A stretch of DNA of 64,000 bases from contig NOKP01000002.1 in NCBI GenBank assembly GCA_002682825.1, positions 5,190,309-5,254,308 of the forward strand, in the 5' to 3' direction. Source of the stretch: Neonectria sp. B-13 (Eukaryota; Ascomycota; Sordariomycetes; Hypocreales; Nectriaceae). Both the position numbers and the translations under genes were made by a program. The notes under the pieces were generated by a model, which worked only from the letters and a program-made list of their open reading frames with translations, was not told the DNA's origin and searched no databases. Shown here in pieces: positions 1,181 through 48,902 of this stretch (the stretch's first letter is position 1; each line of letters starts with the position of its first letter).

Positions 1181-3688
1181 ATGTCAATGGCAGAACTACA
1201 GATTTCAAATGTGCGTCTGGTCGACGAGTACCTATCGAAAACAACATGGAAGGGCTCTGAGAATGCCAACTCGACCTACTCTCACCAGGGACTCATGCAG
1301 TACGTCTCCCAGCATGTCATTTCCGAATACTGGCTCCAGAAGATCTACACCGAGGAGATTCACAAGTTCAACAACGAGAACCGTTTTCACATCCATGATC
1401 TCGGTTTCTTGAGCGCGTACTGTTCGGGGTGGAGCCTTGAAGACATCCTCCTCCAAGGCTTTGGTGGTGTCGAGAACAAGATCCAGTGCCGACCGCCCAA
1501 GCACCTCAACACTGCCCTCAACCAGACGGTCAACTTCCTGTTCACCCTCCAAGGAGAGCTTGCTGGAGCCCAGGCACTATCGAACTTTGACACGTATCTC
1601 GCTCCTTTCATCCGAAACGATGATCTCTCATACTCTGATGTCTTCAAGTATGTGCAGAGCTTCGTCTATTCGCTCAACGTGCCCACACGGAGTGGCTTTC
1701 AGGCGCCTTTCACCAATGTTGCCTTGGACTTGATCTGTCCCAAAAACCTTCAATTCCAGCCTGTCATCATAGGTGGTGAGCCACACCCGACATGGATGTA
1801 CCGCGACTTCCAGGAGGAGATGGACCTGATCAACAGAGCCTTCGCCGAGGTCATGATTCAGGGCGACGGCAACGGCAACATCTTTTCTTTCCCCATCCCG
1901 ACCTACAACCTCTATGAAGGCATTGACTGGGAGTCACCTCGCTGGGAATCCATTTGGGAGATGACGGCTAAATATGGCGTGCCCTACTTCGCCAACTTCA
2001 TCAACAGCGACTTGGACCCCGAAGATTTTCGGTCGATGTGCTGTCGGCTCCGACTCGATCTTAGCAAGCTGCACTGTAGAGTCGGTGGTCAATACGGCGC
2101 GAGCCCGTTAACTGGCTCCATTGGAGTCGTCACACTGAACTTACCGAACCTTGCCTTCCGCGCCGACGGCAACAAGGAGTTGTTCTTCGCAGAGCTTTCC
2201 GAAACGTTGCGAGTTGCTAAGGACTCACTCGAGATCAAGCGAAAAGTGGTGAATGAGAATTCTGCCTTGTATCCCTATGCGGCTCATTATCTCTCGGCCA
2301 CCAAGCACCGCACAGGCTCCCACTGGACCAACCACTTCAGCACCATTGGTATCAACGGCATGAACGAAGCTCTCGTCGCCCTTTTCGGTGAAGGCATCGT
2401 CGAGCACAAGGATTTCGCCCTCCAGACGCTCGAGTTCATCAAGGAGCGACTTCAAGAATTCCAAACCGAAACTGGTAACCTCTATAACCTCGAGGCCAGT
2501 CCAGCAGAGAGCGCTTGCTACAAGCTTGCTCGGCGAGACAAGGAGCTTTTTCCCGATCGCAAGATCCCAACCTTCTACACCAACTCGACCATGCTCCCCG
2601 TAGACACGACCGAGGACCTCTTTGAAGCGCTTGGCCACCAAGAAGAGTTACAATGCTCTTACACAGGCGGCACTGTTTTCCACGCCTTTTTGGGTGAGCG
2701 TTTATCGAACTGGAGGATGGCACGAGACCTGGTGAAGATGTTGACAGCACGTTACCGCGTCCCTTACATTACCCTCACGCCGACTTTCAGTATCTGCAAA
2801 ACACACGGCTACCGTGCGGGGGAAGAACCACAATGCACGTTGTGCGCTGAGGAATGCCTCGTCTATTCACGCATCGTTGGCTACTTCCGTCCCACGCGAG
2901 ACTGGAACAAGGGTAAAACAGCAGAGTTTTCTCAGCGAAAGACCTACCTTAATCCAATGGACTCTCCTACTAGCGACGGAAAGAAGAAGGATAGCAAACA
3001 ACTGGACCTAGAACGACAAGTCGCCGAGATCGCTGATCTGCCCGTGGCTGGGTACACGAAGCTGACCCTCAGCGACTGGCCAGGCAAGATGCAAGCCTCT
3101 ATCATGTTTACATCTCGCTGCAACTTATCCTGCCCATGGTGTCATAATGGGCCGCTCGTTCTTGGCGAGCGTGACGAATACACAGTCCTGGACGTCTTTC
3201 GTCACATCACGTCAACACCGCATAAATCACTCGTCATCTCGGGCGGCGAGCCGACCATCCATAAAGGCTTGATCCCTTTCATGCAGCTTCTCAGACAGGC
3301 GGGTGTGAGTATAAAGCTCGACAGCAACGGCACATCGCCCGCTATCTTGCGCCGCGTATTTGCCGAGAAGCTTGTTGACTTCGTGGCAATGGACATCAAG
3401 TGCGCGCTAGAGAACTACAAGAAAGTGACAGGCAAAAAGGTATCACCGAAGGTGCTGGAGTCTAGCATTGCCCTTATCAAAGAGAGCGGGGTTCCTCACG
3501 AGTTCCGCACCACAGTTGTGCCGGAGCTGGTGGATGTTGAGGATCTGTTTGAGGCGAAACGTTTGGCTGGTGGGAAGCTGACGATGCAACGCTTCCGCAA
3601 GGGTGACAGCAATTTGCACGAAAAGTTTCGTGAGTGCCAAGAGCACACTGAACAGGAATTCAAGGCGATGGTTACTCAAGTAGCATAG
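1181..3688 (+). CDS. nrdDG: Fused anaerobic ribonucleotide reductase (NrdD) and its radical-SAM activase (NrdG)
   Basis: This intronless gene encodes 835 aa. The start is ATG 1181 (context CTACCATGT); an in-frame GTG at 1169 is not usable in a nuclear gene. Residues 1 to about 585 are the class III glycyl-radical ribonucleotide reductase, which makes deoxyribonucleotides without oxygen. They begin directly at the barrel domain with no ATP-cone. Visible marks are the Cys287-Cys288 pair, a zinc site C539/H542/C552/C555/C559, and the C-terminal radical motif RIVGY with Gly567, followed by the usual WN-GK-E-RK-Y stretch. A linker of about 40 residues (lysine-rich near 590-597) leads to the activase. 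This has the LSDWPGK lead-in, the radical-SAM cluster motif C647-x3-C651-x2-C654 followed by HNGP, and the SAM-binding GGEP motif. In bacteria these are two adjacent genes. Codon use looks like that of the neighbours. Function is clear; transfer from a bacterium is inference. Confidence 0.93.
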   Translation: MSMAELQISNVRLVDEYLSKTTWKGSENANSTYSHQGLMQYVSQHVISEYWLQKIYTEEIHKFNNENRFHIHDLGFLSAYCSGWSLEDILLQGFGGVENKIQCRPPKHLNTALNQTVNFLFTLQGELAGAQALSNFDTYLAPFIRNDDLSYSDVFKYVQSFVYSLNVPTRSGFQAPFTNVALDLICPKNLQFQPVIIGGEPHPTWMYRDFQEEMDLINRAFAEVMIQGDGNGNIFSFPIPTYNLYEGIDWESPRWESIWEMTAKYGVPYFANFINSDLDPEDFRSMCCRLRLDLSKLHCRVGGQYGASPLTGSIGVVTLNLPNLAFRADGNKELFFAELSETLRVAKDSLEIKRKVVNENSALYPYAAHYLSATKHRTGSHWTNHFSTIGINGMNEALVALFGEGIVEHKDFALQTLEFIKERLQEFQTETGNLYNLEASPAESACYKLARRDKELFPDRKIPTFYTNSTMLPVDTTEDLFEALGHQEELQCSYTGGTVFHAFLGERLSNWRMARDLVKMLTARYRVPYITLTPTFSICKTHGYRAGEEPQCTLCAEECLVYSRIVGYFRPTRDWNKGKTAEFSQRKTYLNPMDSPTSDGKKKDSKQLDLERQVAEIADLPVAGYTKLTLSDWPGKMQASIMFTSRCNLSCPWCHNGPLVLGERDEYTVLDVFRHITSTPHKSLVISGGEPTIHKGLIPFMQLLRQAGVSIKLDSNGTSPAILRRVFAEKLVDFVAMDIKCALENYKKVTGKKVSPKVLESSIALIKESGVPHEFRTTVVPELVDVEDLFEAKRLAGGKLTMQRFRKGDSNLHEKFRECQEHTEQEFKAMVTQVA

Positions 3689-41300: not shown

Positions 41301-42596
41301 CCTCGGTGATTTCTGTGAGGTTGGTGTGGGCATTCAAGTAGGGGCCAACCCAGTCGTTCCCTTTGTCCCATGTGCCGTGCAAGTCATATGACATTCTACA
41401 AAATTAGAATGAGTATTATTGAGGGACTTGAGAGTTGGTAAAGCTTACATGTTGAGAAAGTCGACGTATTTTTGAATGGCCTCAATGTCGAAATGTTGTA
41501 GGTACCCTGTTAATATTGTTAACACTACCCGCGGTATTCGCCAACTTATTGGAGCAAATGAAGAAAATCGTTGCAACATACAATACGATGCAGGGATTGT
41601 GATGCTAAGCCCGTCTCGGCCGCCGCTAGTCTTCATCGCTGCCTTGAGCCTACGCAAAAAGACGGGGAAGTTTTCAAAATCCTCGTCTCGCCCGCTTCTG
41701 TCCTCGGCAGCGGGGTACTCCCAATCGAGGTCGACACCATCAAAGTTATAGGTTGACATGAAGCTAACGAGCGACTTGGCAAACTTCTTAGTACTCGCTT
41801 CTGACCTTGCAATGTCAGAAAAGGTCGTGGCCGTAGGACCTGGATCGTTGAAGGTCCAGCCGCCGATTGCGATGAAGACCTTCAAGTCCGGGTCAGCCTT
41901 TTTCAAGTTCGTCAAGCGCTTGTACATGTCCACATCAGAAGTTGACGAGGGGACCACTTCAAAGGTGTCGGGATTAATGGACGCAAAGGCAAAGTTGAGG
42001 TGCGTGTAAACGCCAACGGGAAGCTGCTCTGGGTAGAACTTATTGCAAGGCCTGGACCGGGACCAACCCTCGTAGTAGCCTACGACTCGGTCAAAGCCTT
42101 GATCGTTGACGGAGCATTTCGGTCGACGAGGGCTTTTTCCATTGCAAAACTCGTCAGTGGTGCCACAAAAGCCGTGTCTGCTGCAGCACACTGCCAGCGA
42201 AATATAGATATCATGTTAGCCATTTCCCTTTACATCAGCTACCTGATGTAGGAACAAACGGAGTGCTTGACAAGCAAGAGAGTCGTTCCAACTCACCGTT
42301 CAACGGACACTTTGTATTTTCAACATATCCTTTTCCGAAATCACCTGGATCACATTCTGCCTTCCTTTCGCAGTTGTTCACACAAATATCTTCGCTGCAG
42401 ACTAAAACGAATCATTCGTCAATTTCTTAAACGTAGTGGAAGGGTCAGAGAAAAGCTAACAATCGGGACCAAGGCCACAGAAACCATATTCAGAGCAGCA
42501 ACCGATGGCGCATGGACTGGATTCACTGCACTCCTGGGCCACGGCGAGAGTGACCAAGAACAAGAGTTGAACGAGTACTTTAAGGAGGGGTGGCAT
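38320..42596 (-). CDS. Killer-toxin-type (subgroup C) chitinase, ChtBD1-GH18
   Basis: Nine exons (42596-42461, 42401-42297, 42190-41582, 41506-41449, 41395-40797, 40724-39514, 39367-39235, 39164-38803, 38676-38320) encode 1189 aa. After the signal peptide (to about residue 20) come two chitin-binding type 1 modules with CCSEYGFCG and CCSRHGFCG cores. GH18 begins at VVGYYEGWS; the catalytic motif is DGVDLDWE with Glu238, then WYLQHFDI and MSYDLHG restored by splicing. A Cys-rich middle (CGEQCPSGW, CCPPDEDVPTCGWY) and a C-terminal region of about 300 aa (VTEHIFEKQ, GEGINGAKSRLWG, FDEWVADHFA) match fungal zymocin alpha/beta-subunit-like chitinases. It is secreted and should cleave chitin. Intron 8 appears to be GC-AG (GCAAGT donor). 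Exon 6 joins exon 7 through a 146-nt GTACGT intron. No gamma-type RNase subunit gene is seen nearby. Confidence 0.87.
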
Positions 42597-44112
42597 CTTA
42601 GCAGCATGAAGGGCCAATAAAGAGAGAGATGGGGATGAGACAAAGAGTTGATAATAAATATGAATACTTGTAGGTGACGGAAGGTAAAGATGAAGCAGTA
42701 TGGTATCTAGGCTGTCGGGGTACTAAAAGGTGCAGACGAGGACTGAACGTGGCGGCCTCCAGATCCGTGTCCGCCTTGATTTCACTTTTGTTCCGTCCCG
42801 TCCGGGATTGATCCTGCACTCCTTAATCATAATCCTGGCAACCAAAGGCCCGCGTTTGCTATTCTAGGACTCATGAGAAGTAGAGTTGGGGCAACTAATC
42901 TCCGTGGATGTAACCAAGCCGACCAGCGGAGTGATGAGGTGGGATGGCGGTGAGAGTTGCAACTGATCTGGAATGATATGAGGTAATGGTGTCAGTATGA
43001 GGGAATATATTGATTAGATTATCCGAGCACACCGTCAGGTCTTGCTTGAATGTTGCTAAGTAGAGTAACATTAGCAATTCACTGATGGGGCCTGTTGGTT
43101 ACCTTTGCATGGGATCTAGCCATTTGTAACTCATTAGGCTGTAGGTCTGAGCAAGGTACTAACTGGACCTAAGAAATGTTTTTGCCAAGGGAATGACTGA
43201 GCACCTGACTCTGGTGGCCTGTAAATGATCGGCCGACTACCTGGACTACCGGTACTACCTGCTCTGGTTGTACTATACATGCTGAAAATGAAGAGACAAG
43301 AAGGGAACGAGCGCGGATTGTAAGATACACAGACAAAATTTTGGCGACAGATATGTGCCGACGATCTACAATTGACATTACGTTGAAGTATTAATTTTAT
43401 AACAGAAACGGGAGGGCGGCCCGTCCCGTTTTGACATATCGGATACTCGTGGAAGGTCTCCACCGGCATCTCAAGATTTTCCACTTATCAAACTTAGAGA
43501 GGCGGAGACGTATTTCCGTTCAAGACCCCTCCCTGTTCCGCTCTTAAGCCGTAGAGTGGACCTAACGCCGATATAACTGTTGGTTCCAGGTTTAACTTAC
43601 CCCTGTATCAAGGTTCTGTTGGTTCCGGGATTAACTGAAAGATAACCTTAGAACCTTATTCGTAGACTAGGCTAGACCCTTGCTTTTTTGCCGGTTCCAG
43701 GTTCAACCTAACCATGTATCAAGGTTCTGTTGGTTCCGGGATTGACTGAAAAATAGGCTAGAAACCTCAGTTCCAAGCCGGATGCACGGCAATTAGGCCG
43801 AACCAGCCCATACTTCATGTCTTGGATCCATTTTGACAGTGACGGGTCCTATGAGAAGTACTTTCTAACCGCCTACTTTACGTCATTCTCGAGCGGCCGG
43901 AGATGAGGCACGGTAAGTTGCCGTTTTGCGGCCTAGACGAAACTCATGCATCGGCAAAACATAGTCACCCTTCGTGGCCCGTTGTGATTTCTGATAATGA
44001 TAAACATTGCCTCTATCCTTCTGCGCTATGATATGACTTCTTGAATCCTGCTACTGCAACGGCAAGTCGCAACTCGCTGCTTTTCGTTCTGTCCCGTGTC
44101 GCTCTTTCCACT
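42597..44112. promoter_or_regulatory. Bidirectional promoter of chitinase and GH55-LysM genes
   Basis: This is the 1.5-kb divergent region shared by two secreted wall-active enzymes. It contains a 111-bp-spaced direct repeat (43582-43767). Open frames inside have no recognisable content. Confidence 0.6.
43582..43767. repeat. Direct repeat, about 75 bp, period 111 bp
   Basis: Two copies, 43582-43656 and 43693-43767, start with GGTTCCAGGTT. They share CTGT/ATGTATCAAGGTTCTG and TTGGTTCCGGGATT, end near GAACC/AAACC, and differ by scattered substitutions. The GGTTCC word recurs inside each copy. They lie about 350 bp upstream of the GH55 ATG and could be duplicated control elements (inference). 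Confidence 0.7.
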
Positions 44113-47100
44113 ATGAAACCCGGTATGCTGAGCCTGGACCGTATAGTCTGGGGTCTGTCGCTTCTCTGTTCATTTGCTCTAGGCCACTCCGGCCATCACC
44201 ACCACGATCAACATCACCACCACCACCACCAAGGTCACCATGGCTTGGCAGCTCGTGACAACGCTACCTTAGGTGAAGCTGCTTCTCTTGTCGAACAAGC
44301 CCTGACCATGCTGTCCAAGGTGAACAAGGCCCGTGTGGAACAGCCTACGCTCAACAAATATCAGTTGATGAATGGTTCTGAGCTCGCCACCCATTCTCTT
44401 GCCGACCCGCTCGACTACTCTGTTAATTCGACTGAGAGGAGACGCGACGTTGATGAGGAAGATGCCCCTAGCAGTAATTCCACAGAAACCGCTGCCCCAT
44501 ACATCATCCCTTCGGAACTGGTCCAGGCAGCCCGAATCGTCGCTGAGTCTCAGTCACAGAAGCCTACCGGAGATCAAGCCGAAGTTGCGGCAAAGATACA
44601 GGCAAAGTACGACCACAAGCTCAGTGACACAAATGCACCGAGACCTCTAGCTCGCCCATATGGCCTCCTGGGCACATTTGGCCCAGAAGCCAAGACCAAG
44701 AGAGCTTCCGGATACTGGATGGCGGAGATGTCCCAACTGGGATCTGCTCCCTTTGCGCCCAGTGGATACAAGGTACGTCAGTTGCTGGTTACCTTGCTAT
44801 TACACTTAAATAGGTGTGCGTCATCTAACTTCCAAACCCAGGTGTGGAGAAACGTCAAGGACTATGGCGCAAAAGGTGATGGCAAAACTGACGATACGGC
44901 TGCCATCAACCTTGCTATTTCCGACGGTGACAGATGTGGCCCAGAATGCGGCGCTAGCACAAAGGTCCCTGCCGTTGTATTCTTTCCATCGGGCACTTAC
45001 CTAGTCAGCTCTTCCATTATCCAGTATTACAATACGCAGTTATTGGGAGATGTGAGTAGAACTGACGAGATGACCGGTTCCTAAGCTACTAACGTATTTC
45101 TATCTAGCCTCATGATATCCCAATCATTCTAGCCGCATCTAGCTTTGTCGGTCTAGGCGTTATCACGAGCGATGTCTACATCAGTGACAGCGAGCAATGG
45201 TGAGCTTTCCCGGGTCATTACAGCGTGCTAGTTCGACGACGTATTGAGGACAAACTGGCTGAATTGCGACTTAGGTATCTCAATACGGCCAACTTCCTCC
45301 GCAGCATCCGAAACTTCAAGATGGATATTCGCCTTACAGATCCGTATGCGTACATCTGTGCCATCCACTGGCAGGTAGCTCAGGCGACATCGCTGGAGAA
45401 TATTGAATTTTACATGCTATACAACTCGGAGGTGCCCGGCAACACGCAGCAGGTAACTCGTCACAGCCACTCTAAACCAAGATGAGCAAGTTATCTTACA
45501 CGTTCCTCAAACTTAGGGTATCTACATGGAAAATGGGTCTGGTGGCTTCATGGCAGATTTGACCTTTGTCGGAGGTAATTTTGGGTATGTTCCCTCTGTA
45601 GTGGTGCCTGTTACCTCACAATCATCATCAATACTTTCATGCTGGTTCTCTAACAGCATCGTCAGAGCATATTTCGGAAACCAGCAGTTTACGACTAGCC
45701 ACTTGGTCTTTACCAATTGCAACACGGCGGTTCAAGTCCACTGGGACTGGGCTTGGACCATGCACGACTACATTATCGAGAGCTGCGGAAGTGGTCTCGT
45801 TGTTGTCGGTGGCGTAAGTACAAATCATCATGATGATCTAACGATTCAAGATAACACCTGCTGATTTTATTTTCTTCTCACAGGCTGGCGGTGCTATGTC
45901 TAGTGGTCAAGGTGTTGGTTCTCTGATCTTAGCTGACACTATTATTGCCAACACTCCCAAGGGCATCGTGAGCTCCTTGGTCGGAGAGAACTCGACGTCG
46001 TTCTTGCTGCAGAATGTCGGTTTCTTCAACGTGGAGCAGGCCGTCGTTGAATCTAGCAAGGATCAAGTGCTCGTGCAGGGAGGTGATCAAGTGGTGCTTG
46101 AAAGTTGGGGCTTCGGCCAGATCAACAACGCCACGTCTGGTACTGGCTTCTTCATCAATGGTGACGAAATCCCGGCCATGAACCGCTCCAAGGCCCTCCT
46201 AGGTGCCCAGTACGACCAGCTTCAGCCGAACCTGTTTACACGACGCCGGCCAAAGTACTATGACGAACCACAGAGCAACATCATGAACGTCAAGGCCCTC
46301 GGGGCCAAGGGTGATGGTGTTACCGATGACACCATTGTACTCAACTCGATCCTGTCCGGCGCAGCAAACACATCATCTATCGTGTATTTTCCTCACGGCA
46401 TTTATATAGTCACTGACACGCTTCGCGTACCCATCGGCTCCCGTATCATTGGTCAGGCCTGGTCCCAGATCATGGGCAAGGGGTCCAAGTTTCAGGACGA
46501 GCTCAAGCCGCGGCCAGTTGTCCAAGTGGCCAGACGAGGCGACGTGGGCATTATCGAAATCCAGGACATCATGTTTACAGTATCTGGCGCCACAGCTGGA
46601 GCAATCGTCGTTGAATGGAACGCCAAGGAGGCTACACAAGGGTCTGTTGGGCTTTGGGGTATGACTATCAATCTCCTACCACCTTCGAATTATCTGTCTT
46701 AGAAGTGTTCAGAGTTTCCTTGCTGATGCTGATTGTCTGATCCAAAATAGATTCCCACATTCGTGTTGGTGGCGCTGCAGGCTCCAATCTACAGTACACA
46801 GACTGTCCCAAGCTATCGGGCTCTGTCAACTCCAAATGCAAGGCGGCATCGATACTCTTCCACCTTACCCCCGGCTCGACGGCCTACCTGGAAAACGCAT
46901 GGAACTGGGTTGGCGATCACGACTTAGACCGAAAGACAAGGGACCAAATCGACGTCTACGCTGCACGAGGCATGCTCATCGAGAGCGACCTGGCCTACCT
47001 CTGGGGCACGGCTTCTGAGCACTGCGTTTTCTACCAGTACCAGCTGTCGAATGCGAGCAACATTCTCATGGCCATGATCCAGACTGAATCGCCCTACTAC

Positions 47101-48902
47101 CAACCGACACCCAAAGCCCCCAAGCCATTTGAGGCCAGTGTTGGTCTCTTCACTGACGACCCGACCTTTGAGGCTTGTACTGAAGACCGCTGCCATACAT
47201 CTTGGGGTGTCCGTATTCTCGACTCAACCGCTGTCTACATTCTAGGCAGTGGCTTATACAGCTGGTTCTATAACTACGATCAGGACTGCCTCGACACTGA
47301 AGACTGCCAGAGTAGAGTCTTCGAGGTGCAGGAGAGCTATGACCTTTGGGTCTATAACCTCTGCACTAAGGGCATCGTCGAGATGGTTTCGCCCCGGAAT
47401 AGCACACCCACCTATGCCCGCGACAACGTCAACGGGTTCCTGTCATCCATTCTCGCGTGGCTCCAGGGTGCCGAAGAAATCTCAGGAAAGCGGGAGTTTC
47501 CGGGATTTCTCGTACACGACCCAGACGATGTTGCCTATCTCGACGTGTCAGATGTTTGCCGTACGGCGCTGACACAACGCATACTGTGTGACGCCCTCGT
47601 CGATGGCTTTGCTGATCGTAGGTATCGCGGCCCTCTCGACGACATGGAGCAAACGGACTCGGTGTGCAACTCAGGCTGTGGCGAGAGCTTGCGCAGTTGG
47701 TTTAACAACGTAGCCGCGGCGTGCGATGGTTATACCATCGGCGGTGTTGTGCCAATGCTCTTAGGCGGTAACATGTGGGCGGGCTATAACGAAACGTGCC
47801 TTGTCAACGAGGCTGGCGAGTATTGCAATGGTATGTCCTCTGCCTGATATCCCCAAGATGCTTCAGAATACTATATATTCTGTTTGATGTCTAGGATGAA
47901 ATTCATAGCTAACGAAATCTTTCCTACGCGGCAGATATCATCGACACATTCACCGAAGTATCAGACTACACCGAAATGCCCCAAGAAGAAATTTGTTCGA
48001 CCTGCTACGTCAAGCGCCTCGCTATAATGCAGGCCTCATCCTACTCGATCTACAACGATGCCTATAAGGAGGAGCTTGAGTATGTCTACTCTAAGTGCGG
48101 TGACACCGGTCCCACTAGCATCCCACCATCCCTTATGCCGTCGGCAGAAGACAGTTCACTCGACTGTGGCACCGACGAGTGGTATACGACCAGCGAGGCC
48201 GGCGAGACATGCAACTCAGTGGCGCTCAATCACGGTGTGTCGTCAGCGTCGCTCTTCATAACCAACCAATACCGGCTGGCCAACTGCAGCATCGATGCCG
48301 CCATCGAGCTCGGTACGAAGCTCTGCTTGCCCACGCAGTGCCACCGCACCTATACGCTCGGTCCCGACGACGAGTGCGCTACTCTTGAGGCCAACGCAAC
48401 CAATGGACTGCAAGAAGGCGACGTGATGCTCTACAATCCCTGGGTTGGCTTTGAGTGCATTAACTTGCACTCAGTGAGCGCCGTCTATGGCACCGTGCTA
48501 TGTCTCGGGCCGCATTACGAGCAACACAACGCCTCCTTTCCTAACGAGGACACCACAACGCCCGTGATACAGAGCGCATACACCTACGATAGCGTCGATC
48601 CTCCCGAGGGCGCCACAGTCCCAGAGGGCACGACGAAGCGCTGCGGCCGATGGTACGTCGCCACCGAGGATGACTCGTGCGCCACTATTTGCGGAACGTC
48701 GTCCATCGACATTGAACTGTTCCTTAAGGTTAACACTGCCCTGGGCACTGACGCTGAGGCGTGTTCGGACAAGCTCGTGGTCGGCAACGCGTACTGTGTG
48801 GGACCCAATCATGACTGGTTGATTCCCTTTCCACACAGAACGGCAGTGACAACGACGATTGCATTCACCGACGGTTATGAGTGGCCTGCAGAGACGGCTT
48901 AG
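44113..48902 (+). CDS. Secreted GH55 beta-1,3-glucanase fused to three LysM modules
   Basis: Nine exons (44113-44772, 44842-45051, 45108-45199, 45275-45452, 45517-45584, 45657-45813, 45884-46658, 46751-47830, 47935-48902) encode 1395 aa. After the signal peptide (to about residue 24) comes a His-rich tract, 13 His in residues 24-44. The two right-handed beta-helix halves of GH55 start at VWRNVKDYGAKGDGKTDD (residue 221) and NVKALGAKGDGVTDD (about 590). Conserved GH55 segments such as ANFLRSIRNFKMDIR, WDWAWTMHDY and WGTASEHCVFYQYQ are intact. The C-terminus holds three fungal LysM-like modules (about 1153-1205, 1205-1265, 1300-1360) with paired cysteines, which normally bind chitin oligomers. 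The enzyme should release glucose or short products from beta-1,3-glucan while anchored to chitin. It is divergent from the chitinase. Confidence 0.9.

What the first reader, a model, noticed from the sequence alone, without database searches (positions are those of the whole stretch)
1181..3688. Class III ribonucleotide reductase fused to its activase in a fungal genome
Both catalytic parts look intact: Gly567 radical motif, zinc cysteines, radical-SAM C-x3-C-x2-C and GGEP. They are normally two bacterial proteins; here they are one 835-aa chain with a linker of about 40 residues. The gene has no intron, while most multi-domain neighbours have 1-8. Class III enzymes are essentially bacterial, archaeal and phage proteins, so bacterial origin plus fusion is likely. 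The host could make DNA precursors without oxygen, and covalent linkage would hold activase and reductase together.
Basis: partly seen in the sequence, partly recalled or inferred. Interest (0 to 1): 0.92.

Follow-up and report, generated by a model that had tools for sequence, protein, structure and literature searches.

The report
Fungal one-piece anaerobic DNA-precursor enzyme
This fungal gene joins an oxygen-free DNA-building-block enzyme to the protein that switches it on, and would likely let the mould copy DNA without oxygen; such fused fungal genes have been in print since 2010, so this one is a new example of a known kind.

Summary
Window 1181-3688 (+) is one uninterrupted 835-codon frame: a complete class III ribonucleotide reductase (NrdD, residues 27-589) followed by a radical-SAM activase (NrdG2, 622-794), catalytic motifs present, in a 6.28 Mb fungal contig. 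It is not new in kind: Lundin et al. 2010 (PMC3019208) described this single-frame fusion in Fusarium, Nectria haematococca, Schizosaccharomyces japonicus and Phytophthora as a bacterial acquisition. Of the 67 closest listed proteins 62 carry an activase half; the 32 with an organism name are all eukaryotic. Beyond the 2010 section: (1) no genuine fusion in 79 prokaryotic loci holding both halves; nrdG is a neighbour, in 16 directly after the nrdD stop in the same frame. (2) The ATP-cone is absent (0 of 67, against 51 of 53 relatives listed below them), and the active site has the extra cysteine and Glu of the thioredoxin-using subtype, so thioredoxin rather than formate is the predicted reductant. 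(3) A tree of 29 rows rejects Nectriaceae as one clade (AU p = 1.3e-5; Grosmannia, Apiospora, a Xylariaceae species, Clonostachys and a Pleurotus record nest inside), suggesting repeated fungus-to-fungus transfer. Activity and anoxic function are predicted, not shown.

The parts
1181..3688 (+). CDS of the NrdD-NrdG fusion, 835 aa (833 aa if translation starts at the second ATG, 1187)
1259..2947 (+). NrdD reductase domain, residues 27-589; no ATP-cone in front of it
   Evidence: Pfam NRDD; PRK08270 matched from profile position 98 on
1421..1423 (+). Cys81, conserved active-site cysteine (role inferred)
   Evidence: C in 175 of 175 rows
2036..2047 (+). MCCR motif, Cys287/Cys288: predicted thiyl-radical cysteine and extra redox cysteine
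   Evidence: alignment to solved NrdD chains; PMC4493059
2492..2494 (+). Glu438, predicted active-site base
   Evidence: E in 175 of 175 rows; aligned with T. maritima NIE
2795..2845 (+). predicted zinc site, Cys539 ... Cys552-x2-Cys555 (His542 near)
2879..2881 (+). Gly567, predicted glycyl-radical residue in RIVGY
2948..3043 (+). linker between the two matched domains, residues 590-621
   Evidence: low model confidence 591-603
3044..3685 (+). NrdG2 activase half, residues 622-835 (profile match 622-794)
   Evidence: TIGR02495; Radical_SAM
3119..3142 (+). radical-SAM motif Cys647-x3-Cys651-x2-Cys654
   Evidence: 57 of 57 rows
3242..3253 (+). GGEP motif, residues 688-691
   Evidence: GGE in 57 of 57, P in 55 of 57

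Best explanation
The gene encodes a member of the eukaryotic NrdD-NrdG fusion family, described in 2010, that was likely acquired from bacteria and is predicted to make deoxyribonucleotides without oxygen. Predicted cycle: the C-terminal activase uses its [4Fe-4S] cluster to cleave S-adenosylmethionine, and the 5'-deoxyadenosyl radical takes a hydrogen from Gly567 of a reductase domain, in the same or a partner chain (not resolved). The stored glycyl radical then makes a thiyl radical on one cysteine of the C287/C288 pair, which starts reduction of a ribonucleoside triphosphate; C81 and the other cysteine of the pair supply electrons and Glu438 acts as base. A thioredoxin-like protein rather than formate is the likely terminal reductant. 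With no ATP-cone, the usual dATP off-switch is predicted to be missing. Shown: one frame, both domains, motif conservation, grouping with other fused proteins, no cone, fungal contig. Inferred: the chemistry, the reductant, the bacterial source, the anoxic role.
For: Both domains over cut-off. Catalytic residues conserved. 62 of 67 closest listed proteins carry an activase half and the 32 with organism names are eukaryotic. The NrdD tree puts window plus 67 hits on one side of a branch, SH-aLRT 99. Published precedent with the same architecture and origin. The model matches class III reductases and, at the C-terminal part, pyruvate formate-lyase activase. No second activase of this family was sought as such, but the genome's other Radical_SAM matches are listed. 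Subtype residues as in the thioredoxin-using group.
Against: No activity, transcript or growth evidence for this gene. The aerobic class I enzyme is present, so the gene may be dispensable. In the NrdG tree the branch that holds all fused rows has no support (62 of 63 group at 88). The bacterial donor is unresolved. P0056 and other rows lack the glycyl region, so not every fungal copy looks functional. E. coli thioredoxin did not serve the T. maritima enzyme (PMC4493059), so the reductant is not settled even in relatives.
Confidence: 0.88

Rival explanations
1. Bacterial contamination or a chimeric assembly placed the gene in the contig.
For: The closest unfused relatives are bacterial; no reads could be checked.
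Against: 6.28 Mb contig with more than 1 Mb on either side; flanking GMC oxidoreductase, carboxylesterase, RTA1 and other frames; GC 52.7% and GC3 65.7%, near the neighbours; 97% identical fused protein in N. punicea and others in 30 more named fungal records; no genuine bacterial fusion found.
Confidence: 0.02
2. The fusion arose in bacteria and was transferred ready-made.
For: 62 of the 67 closest listed proteins carry the fusion, including deep-branching unnamed metagenome rows; donors may be unsampled.
Against: No genuine fusion in 79 prokaryotic loci with both halves, nor in 19 such viral loci. The one run-through frame, L029, has its glycyl motif in another frame. Limits: only the 80 best loci per collection were kept, found by motif patterns.
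Confidence: 0.12
3. The fungal gene is a vertically inherited relic with patchy loss, not passed between fungi.
For: Present in many Nectriaceae and in distant fungi; loss alone can make patchy distributions.
Against: Nectriaceae as one clade is rejected, AU p = 1.3e-5, with Grosmannia beside Neonectria (97/95) and Apiospora beside F. nematophilum (98/92). I had seen the pattern before naming the group.
Confidence: 0.2
4. The protein is a decayed or repurposed glycyl-radical enzyme without reductase activity.
For: An aerobic reductase is present; some fungal rows lack the glycyl region.
Against: In this protein C81, C287, C288, E438, G567 and the radical-SAM motif are intact and conserved across 57 fused rows at 48-97% identity, as expected under selection for function.
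Confidence: 0.07

Closest known systems
Eukaryotic NrdDG fusions of Fusarium, Gibberella, Nectria haematococca, S. japonicus and Phytophthora (Lundin et al. 2010, PMC3019208, section 9)
   Same: Single open frame, reductase then activase, one clade, bacterial origin proposed
   Different: Only the species; ATP-cone loss, active-site subtype and lack of prokaryotic fusions are not discussed in the section I read
Bacterial NrdD of NCBIfam PRK08270 with a neighbouring NrdG2 gene (e.g. Desulfobacterales, Bacteroidales and Moorella loci)
   Same: Same reductase family (window scores 841 bits, cut-off 548) and same activase family; 51 to 55% identical in the reductase half
   Different: Two genes, and an N-terminal ATP-cone in 51 of 53 listed relatives
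Thermotoga maritima / Neisseria bacilliformis class III reductases (NrdD2 subtype; PMC4493059)
   Same: CC pair in the SCCR/MCCR motif, Glu in NxE; predicted protein reductant
   Different: About 20% identical to the T. maritima chains in the fold alignment; unfused; T. maritima has Ile at the finger-loop tip
E. coli / T4 / L. lactis formate-dependent class III reductases (NrdD1 subtype)
   Same: Glycyl radical and the same fold (T4 chains 1h78-1hk8 matched)
   Different: Lack the third cysteine and the Glu (PMC4493059); unfused

Membership tests
Class III ribonucleotide reductase (NrdD) | NrdD domain over the family cut-off and NrdD fold | tested here: met
Class III ribonucleotide reductase (NrdD) | C-terminal glycyl-radical glycine | tested here: met
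   Gly567 in RIVGY; 57 of 57 fused rows, 65 of 68 overall with 3 gaps
Class III ribonucleotide reductase (NrdD) | radical detected and NTP reduction under anoxia | not testable with these tools
   bench work
NrdG2-type radical-SAM activase | CxxxCxxC and family profile over cut-off | tested here: met
   TIGR02495 149.3 bits against 131.15; motif 57 of 57
Eukaryotic NrdDG fusion family (Lundin 2010) | both halves in one open frame | tested here: met
Eukaryotic NrdDG fusion family (Lundin 2010) | reductase half in the eukaryotic clade | tested here: met
   SH-aLRT 99
Eukaryotic NrdDG fusion family (Lundin 2010) | activase half in the same clade | tested here: inconclusive
   fused rows on one side but branch unsupported; 62 of 63 group at 88
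Cone-regulated class III reductase | N-terminal ATP-cone (PF03477) | tested here: not met
   not among the matches; PRK08270 match starts at profile position 98
NrdD2 (thioredoxin-using) subtype | third active-site cysteine and active-site Glu | tested here: met
   C287/C288 and E438; definition from PMC4493059. Mapping of the Glu is my reading
NrdD2 (thioredoxin-using) subtype | use of thioredoxin as reductant | not testable with these tools
   bench assay needed

The most novel reading that the evidence does not exclude
In eukaryotes the class III reductase became a one-gene, self-activating, brake-free module for making DNA precursors without oxygen: fused once after transfer from bacteria, stripped of its dATP switch, run on the host's thioredoxin, and then passed repeatedly from fungus to fungus as a portable trait for airless niches.
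Probability: 0.4. Interest if true: 0.6.

Novelty: new member of a known kind. Interest (0 to 1): 0.35.

Why it matters
Class I reductase, the normal eukaryotic enzyme, needs oxygen to make its radical (PMC3019208), so how a fungus makes DNA precursors in airless places is an open question. A conserved class III enzyme carried by many moulds and some yeasts makes that testable with a deletion. The missing ATP-cone, the thioredoxin-type active site and the apparent fungus-to-fungus transfers are concrete questions that the 2010 section left open.

Tried and rejected
Contamination: rejected on contig length, flanks, composition and relatives. Reads were not available.

A prokaryotic origin of the fusion: one candidate (L029, Anaeromyxobacter terrae) rejected, because its glycyl motif lies in another frame.

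Naming a bacterial donor: failed. The fused clade sits beside the sampled prokaryotes; in the NrdG-half search P0121-P0125 (57-76%) look like eukaryotic or unnamed pieces, and P0126-P0240 are 34-46% identical.

A mobile vehicle: Starship-type captain matches (PF11917) occur in the genome (15, the search says a lower bound), none on contig C39. In the first 8 kb of the window and the 10 kb before it no repeat longer than 34 bases was found.

A wider anaerobic gene set: no pyruvate formate-lyase match. One squalene/oxidosqualene cyclase locus, 549 bits to the general cyclase model and 152 to the hopene-cyclase model (cut-off 431). One quinone-type dihydroorotate dehydrogenase over its cut-off and one homologue best matching a class 1A-type model below its cut-off.

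Placing the activase against Gly567 in the model: not attempted; the tool gives pLDDT and pTM (84.7, 0.67), no coordinates.

Published function: ten paper searches listed no paper that I recognised as an experiment on a eukaryotic NrdDG. Lists were cut (20 of 63; 20 of 760), and subscription journals are mostly missing.

Full report
What is there. The window lies at bases 5,190,309-5,254,308 of contig C39 (6,281,238 bases) of an unnamed 60.9 Mb genome in 123 contigs. From 1181 to 3688 on the plus strand runs one open frame of 835 codons. It matches Pfam NRDD over the whole model at residues 27-589 and Radical_SAM at 642-785, and NCBIfam models for the reductase (PRK08270) and the activase (NrdG2) above their cut-offs. 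It is the only NrdD match in the genome, beside one class I large-subunit locus and one small-subunit locus. The closest listed relative is a hypothetical protein of Neonectria punicea (97%), so the host is probably a Neonectria or close kin (inference).

It belongs to the host. More than a megabase of contig lies on either side. Two adjacent upstream frames match the N- and C-terminal GMC oxidoreductase domains and end about 1.3 kb before the gene; frames further downstream match a glycosyltransferase, a carboxylesterase, a GH18 chitinase, a hybrid histidine kinase, DUF7703 and RTA1. GC is 52.7% and GC3 65.7%, against 50.5-52.4% and 52-64% for four long frames of the window and 56.4% and 74.3% for the class I large subunit. 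No reads were available.

It is a known kind. The protein search scored 8000 candidates and listed the best 120. Hits 1-67 are 44-97% identical over 54-100% of the query; 62 of them carry an activase half (P0053, P0060, P0063 and P0066 have none, P0052 only a 41-residue piece). Of the 67, 32 bear an organism name: 31 fungi and one oomycete, none bacterial. Lundin et al. 2010 (PMC3019208; section 9 read in full, other passages) already reported the single-frame fusion in Fusarium, Gibberella, Nectria haematococca, S. japonicus and Phytophthora, as a bacterial-to-eukaryote transfer with later spread among eukaryotes. PMC8520639 (passages) counts anaerobic deoxynucleotide synthesis by an acquired reductase, which it calls Class-I, among the traits of S. 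japonicus.

Trees. NrdD tree (quick method): window + 67 hits + 18 of the 53 listed bacterial proteins + 80 prokaryotic loci + 9 of 80 viral loci = 175 rows, none dropped. The window and the 67 hits are one side of a branch, SH-aLRT 99. That group was set by rank, not by proven taxonomy. NrdG tree (quick method): 63 fused + 97 unfused = 160 rows (one short viral row left out). The fused rows again sit on one side, but that branch has no support; 62 of the 63 (all but the long row P0065) group at 88. The two halves agree, the activase half weakly. The donor is not resolved.

Was the donor fused? Of 80 prokaryotic loci, 79 hold both halves. One, L029, runs both through one frame, but its RIVGY motif is in another frame, so it is a frameshift artefact or a broken gene. 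The other 78 have two frames; in 16 the activase frame follows the nrdD stop directly in the same frame. Of 80 viral loci 19 hold both halves and none is fused. Only the 80 best loci of each collection were kept, and they were found by motif patterns, so this is a strong tendency rather than a proof. Fusion at or after transfer, by loss of a stop between neighbours, is the simplest path (inference).

Lost switch. The ATP-cone (PF03477) is annotated in 0 of 67 hits of the fused group and in 51 of the 53 relatives listed below them (P0083 and P0093 lack it). Cones are often gained and lost (PMC4390871, passages), so the loss is notable but not unique. A missing dATP off-switch is the prediction.

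Active site. C81 and E438 are the same in 175 of 175 rows; C287 and C288 in 174, with one gap. The 80 prokaryotic loci were found by patterns including MCCRLRLD, and the viral ones by RSMCCRLR, so C287/C288 is partly by construction there; the 67 hits and the 18 bacterial proteins are free of that. PMC4493059 (sections 13 and 15 and passages) gives the definition of NrdD2 as a third cysteine and a Glu, reports thioredoxin as a reductant for the N. bacilliformis enzyme, reports both cysteines of SCCR as essential, and also reports that E. coli thioredoxin could not serve the T. maritima enzyme. The original N. bacilliformis paper was not seen. The Glu correspondence (E438 with the E of NIEQVPAE in T. 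maritima) is my reading. Thioredoxin is thus the predicted reductant; the lack of a pyruvate formate-lyase match is a weak further point. I do not assign which cysteine of the pair carries the thiyl radical.

Structure. The predicted model (mean pLDDT 84.7, pTM 0.67) matches class III reductases of Prevotella copri, T. maritima, S. thermophilus and T4, and then pyruvate formate-lyase activase. The join (591-603) and residues 296-309 are of low confidence.

Movement among fungi. In a careful tree of 29 rows (window plus 28 of the 32 named proteins; P0043, P0053, P0056 and P0066 left out as partial, unfused or oddly modelled), Grosmannia clavigera branches with the window and N. punicea (97/95), Apiospora with Fusarium nematophilum (98/92), the Xylariaceae row with F. 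decemcellulare (89/89), and Clonostachys beside five Fusarium rows (100/100); the Pleurotus record also falls in the window's group (96/96). Holding the 16 Nectriaceae rows together is rejected (AU p = 1.3e-5). I had seen the pattern first, and family assignments are recalled. Grosmannia, Apiospora, Xylariaceae and Clonostachys copies lie on contigs of 0.77-5.3 Mb, which speaks against stray contamination; the Pleurotus record (484 kb contig) is the least certain. No Starship captain match lies on C39.

S. japonicus. Its single NrdD (P0053, 594 aa) falls among filamentous fungi in the NrdD tree (fork support 83-86), so it may be a fused copy that lost its activase half. The fused copy reported in 2010 is not in the listing.

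Rumen fungi also carry NRDD domains (PMC6712302, passages); none of the named hits here is one, so their copies may be a separate acquisition (not tested).

Verdict. A real, intact-looking, host-encoded fused class III reductase; a new member of a family in print since 2010. What goes beyond the 2010 section I read is the lost ATP-cone, the thioredoxin-type active site, the absence of prokaryotic fusions in 79 loci, and the discordant fungal tree.

Noticed in passing
P0065 (947 aa, metagenome): A fused NrdDG with an intein-like insert of about 155 residues exactly at the MC/CRLRLD active-site motif (ends ...HN before CRLRLD).
   Followed up: partly
L029:3515-6481: Anaeromyxobacter terrae nrdD-nrdG runs through one frame, but the glycyl motif is in another frame: frameshift or broken gene.
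   Followed up: yes
P0009, Pleurotus ostreatoroseus record: A basidiomycete record 83% identical to the window and nested with Nectriaceae: transfer, mislabelled strain or contamination.
   Followed up: partly
P0121 (Fusarium oxysporum f. sp. vasinfectum) and P0122 (Ascosphaera pollenicola): Short NrdG-only fungal proteins (256 and 277 aa): split gene models or copies that lost the reductase half.
   Followed up: no
P0056, Colletotrichum musicola: The protein model lacks the zinc and glycyl-radical stretch between CRAHG and WNRGK: mis-modelled intron or decayed gene.
   Followed up: no
P0053, Schizosaccharomyces japonicus: The single, unfused NrdD branches inside filamentous fungi, which suggests secondary loss of the activase half.
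   Followed up: partly
L177:1249-2235 (G000 contig C13): A second dihydroorotate-dehydrogenase-like frame whose best model is a class 1A-type (PRK02506, 126 bits, cut-off 301); a fumarate-type enzyme would be another oxygen-independence trait.
   Followed up: partly
window 41448-48902: GH18 chitinase frame next to pectate-lyase-like frames, a secreted cell-wall-degrading neighbourhood.
   Followed up: no
G000 contigs C53, C72, C79, C42, C63, C50, C35: Fifteen matches to the Starship-captain family PF11917, several as mirrored pairs about 30-240 kb apart and some with many stops.
   Followed up: no
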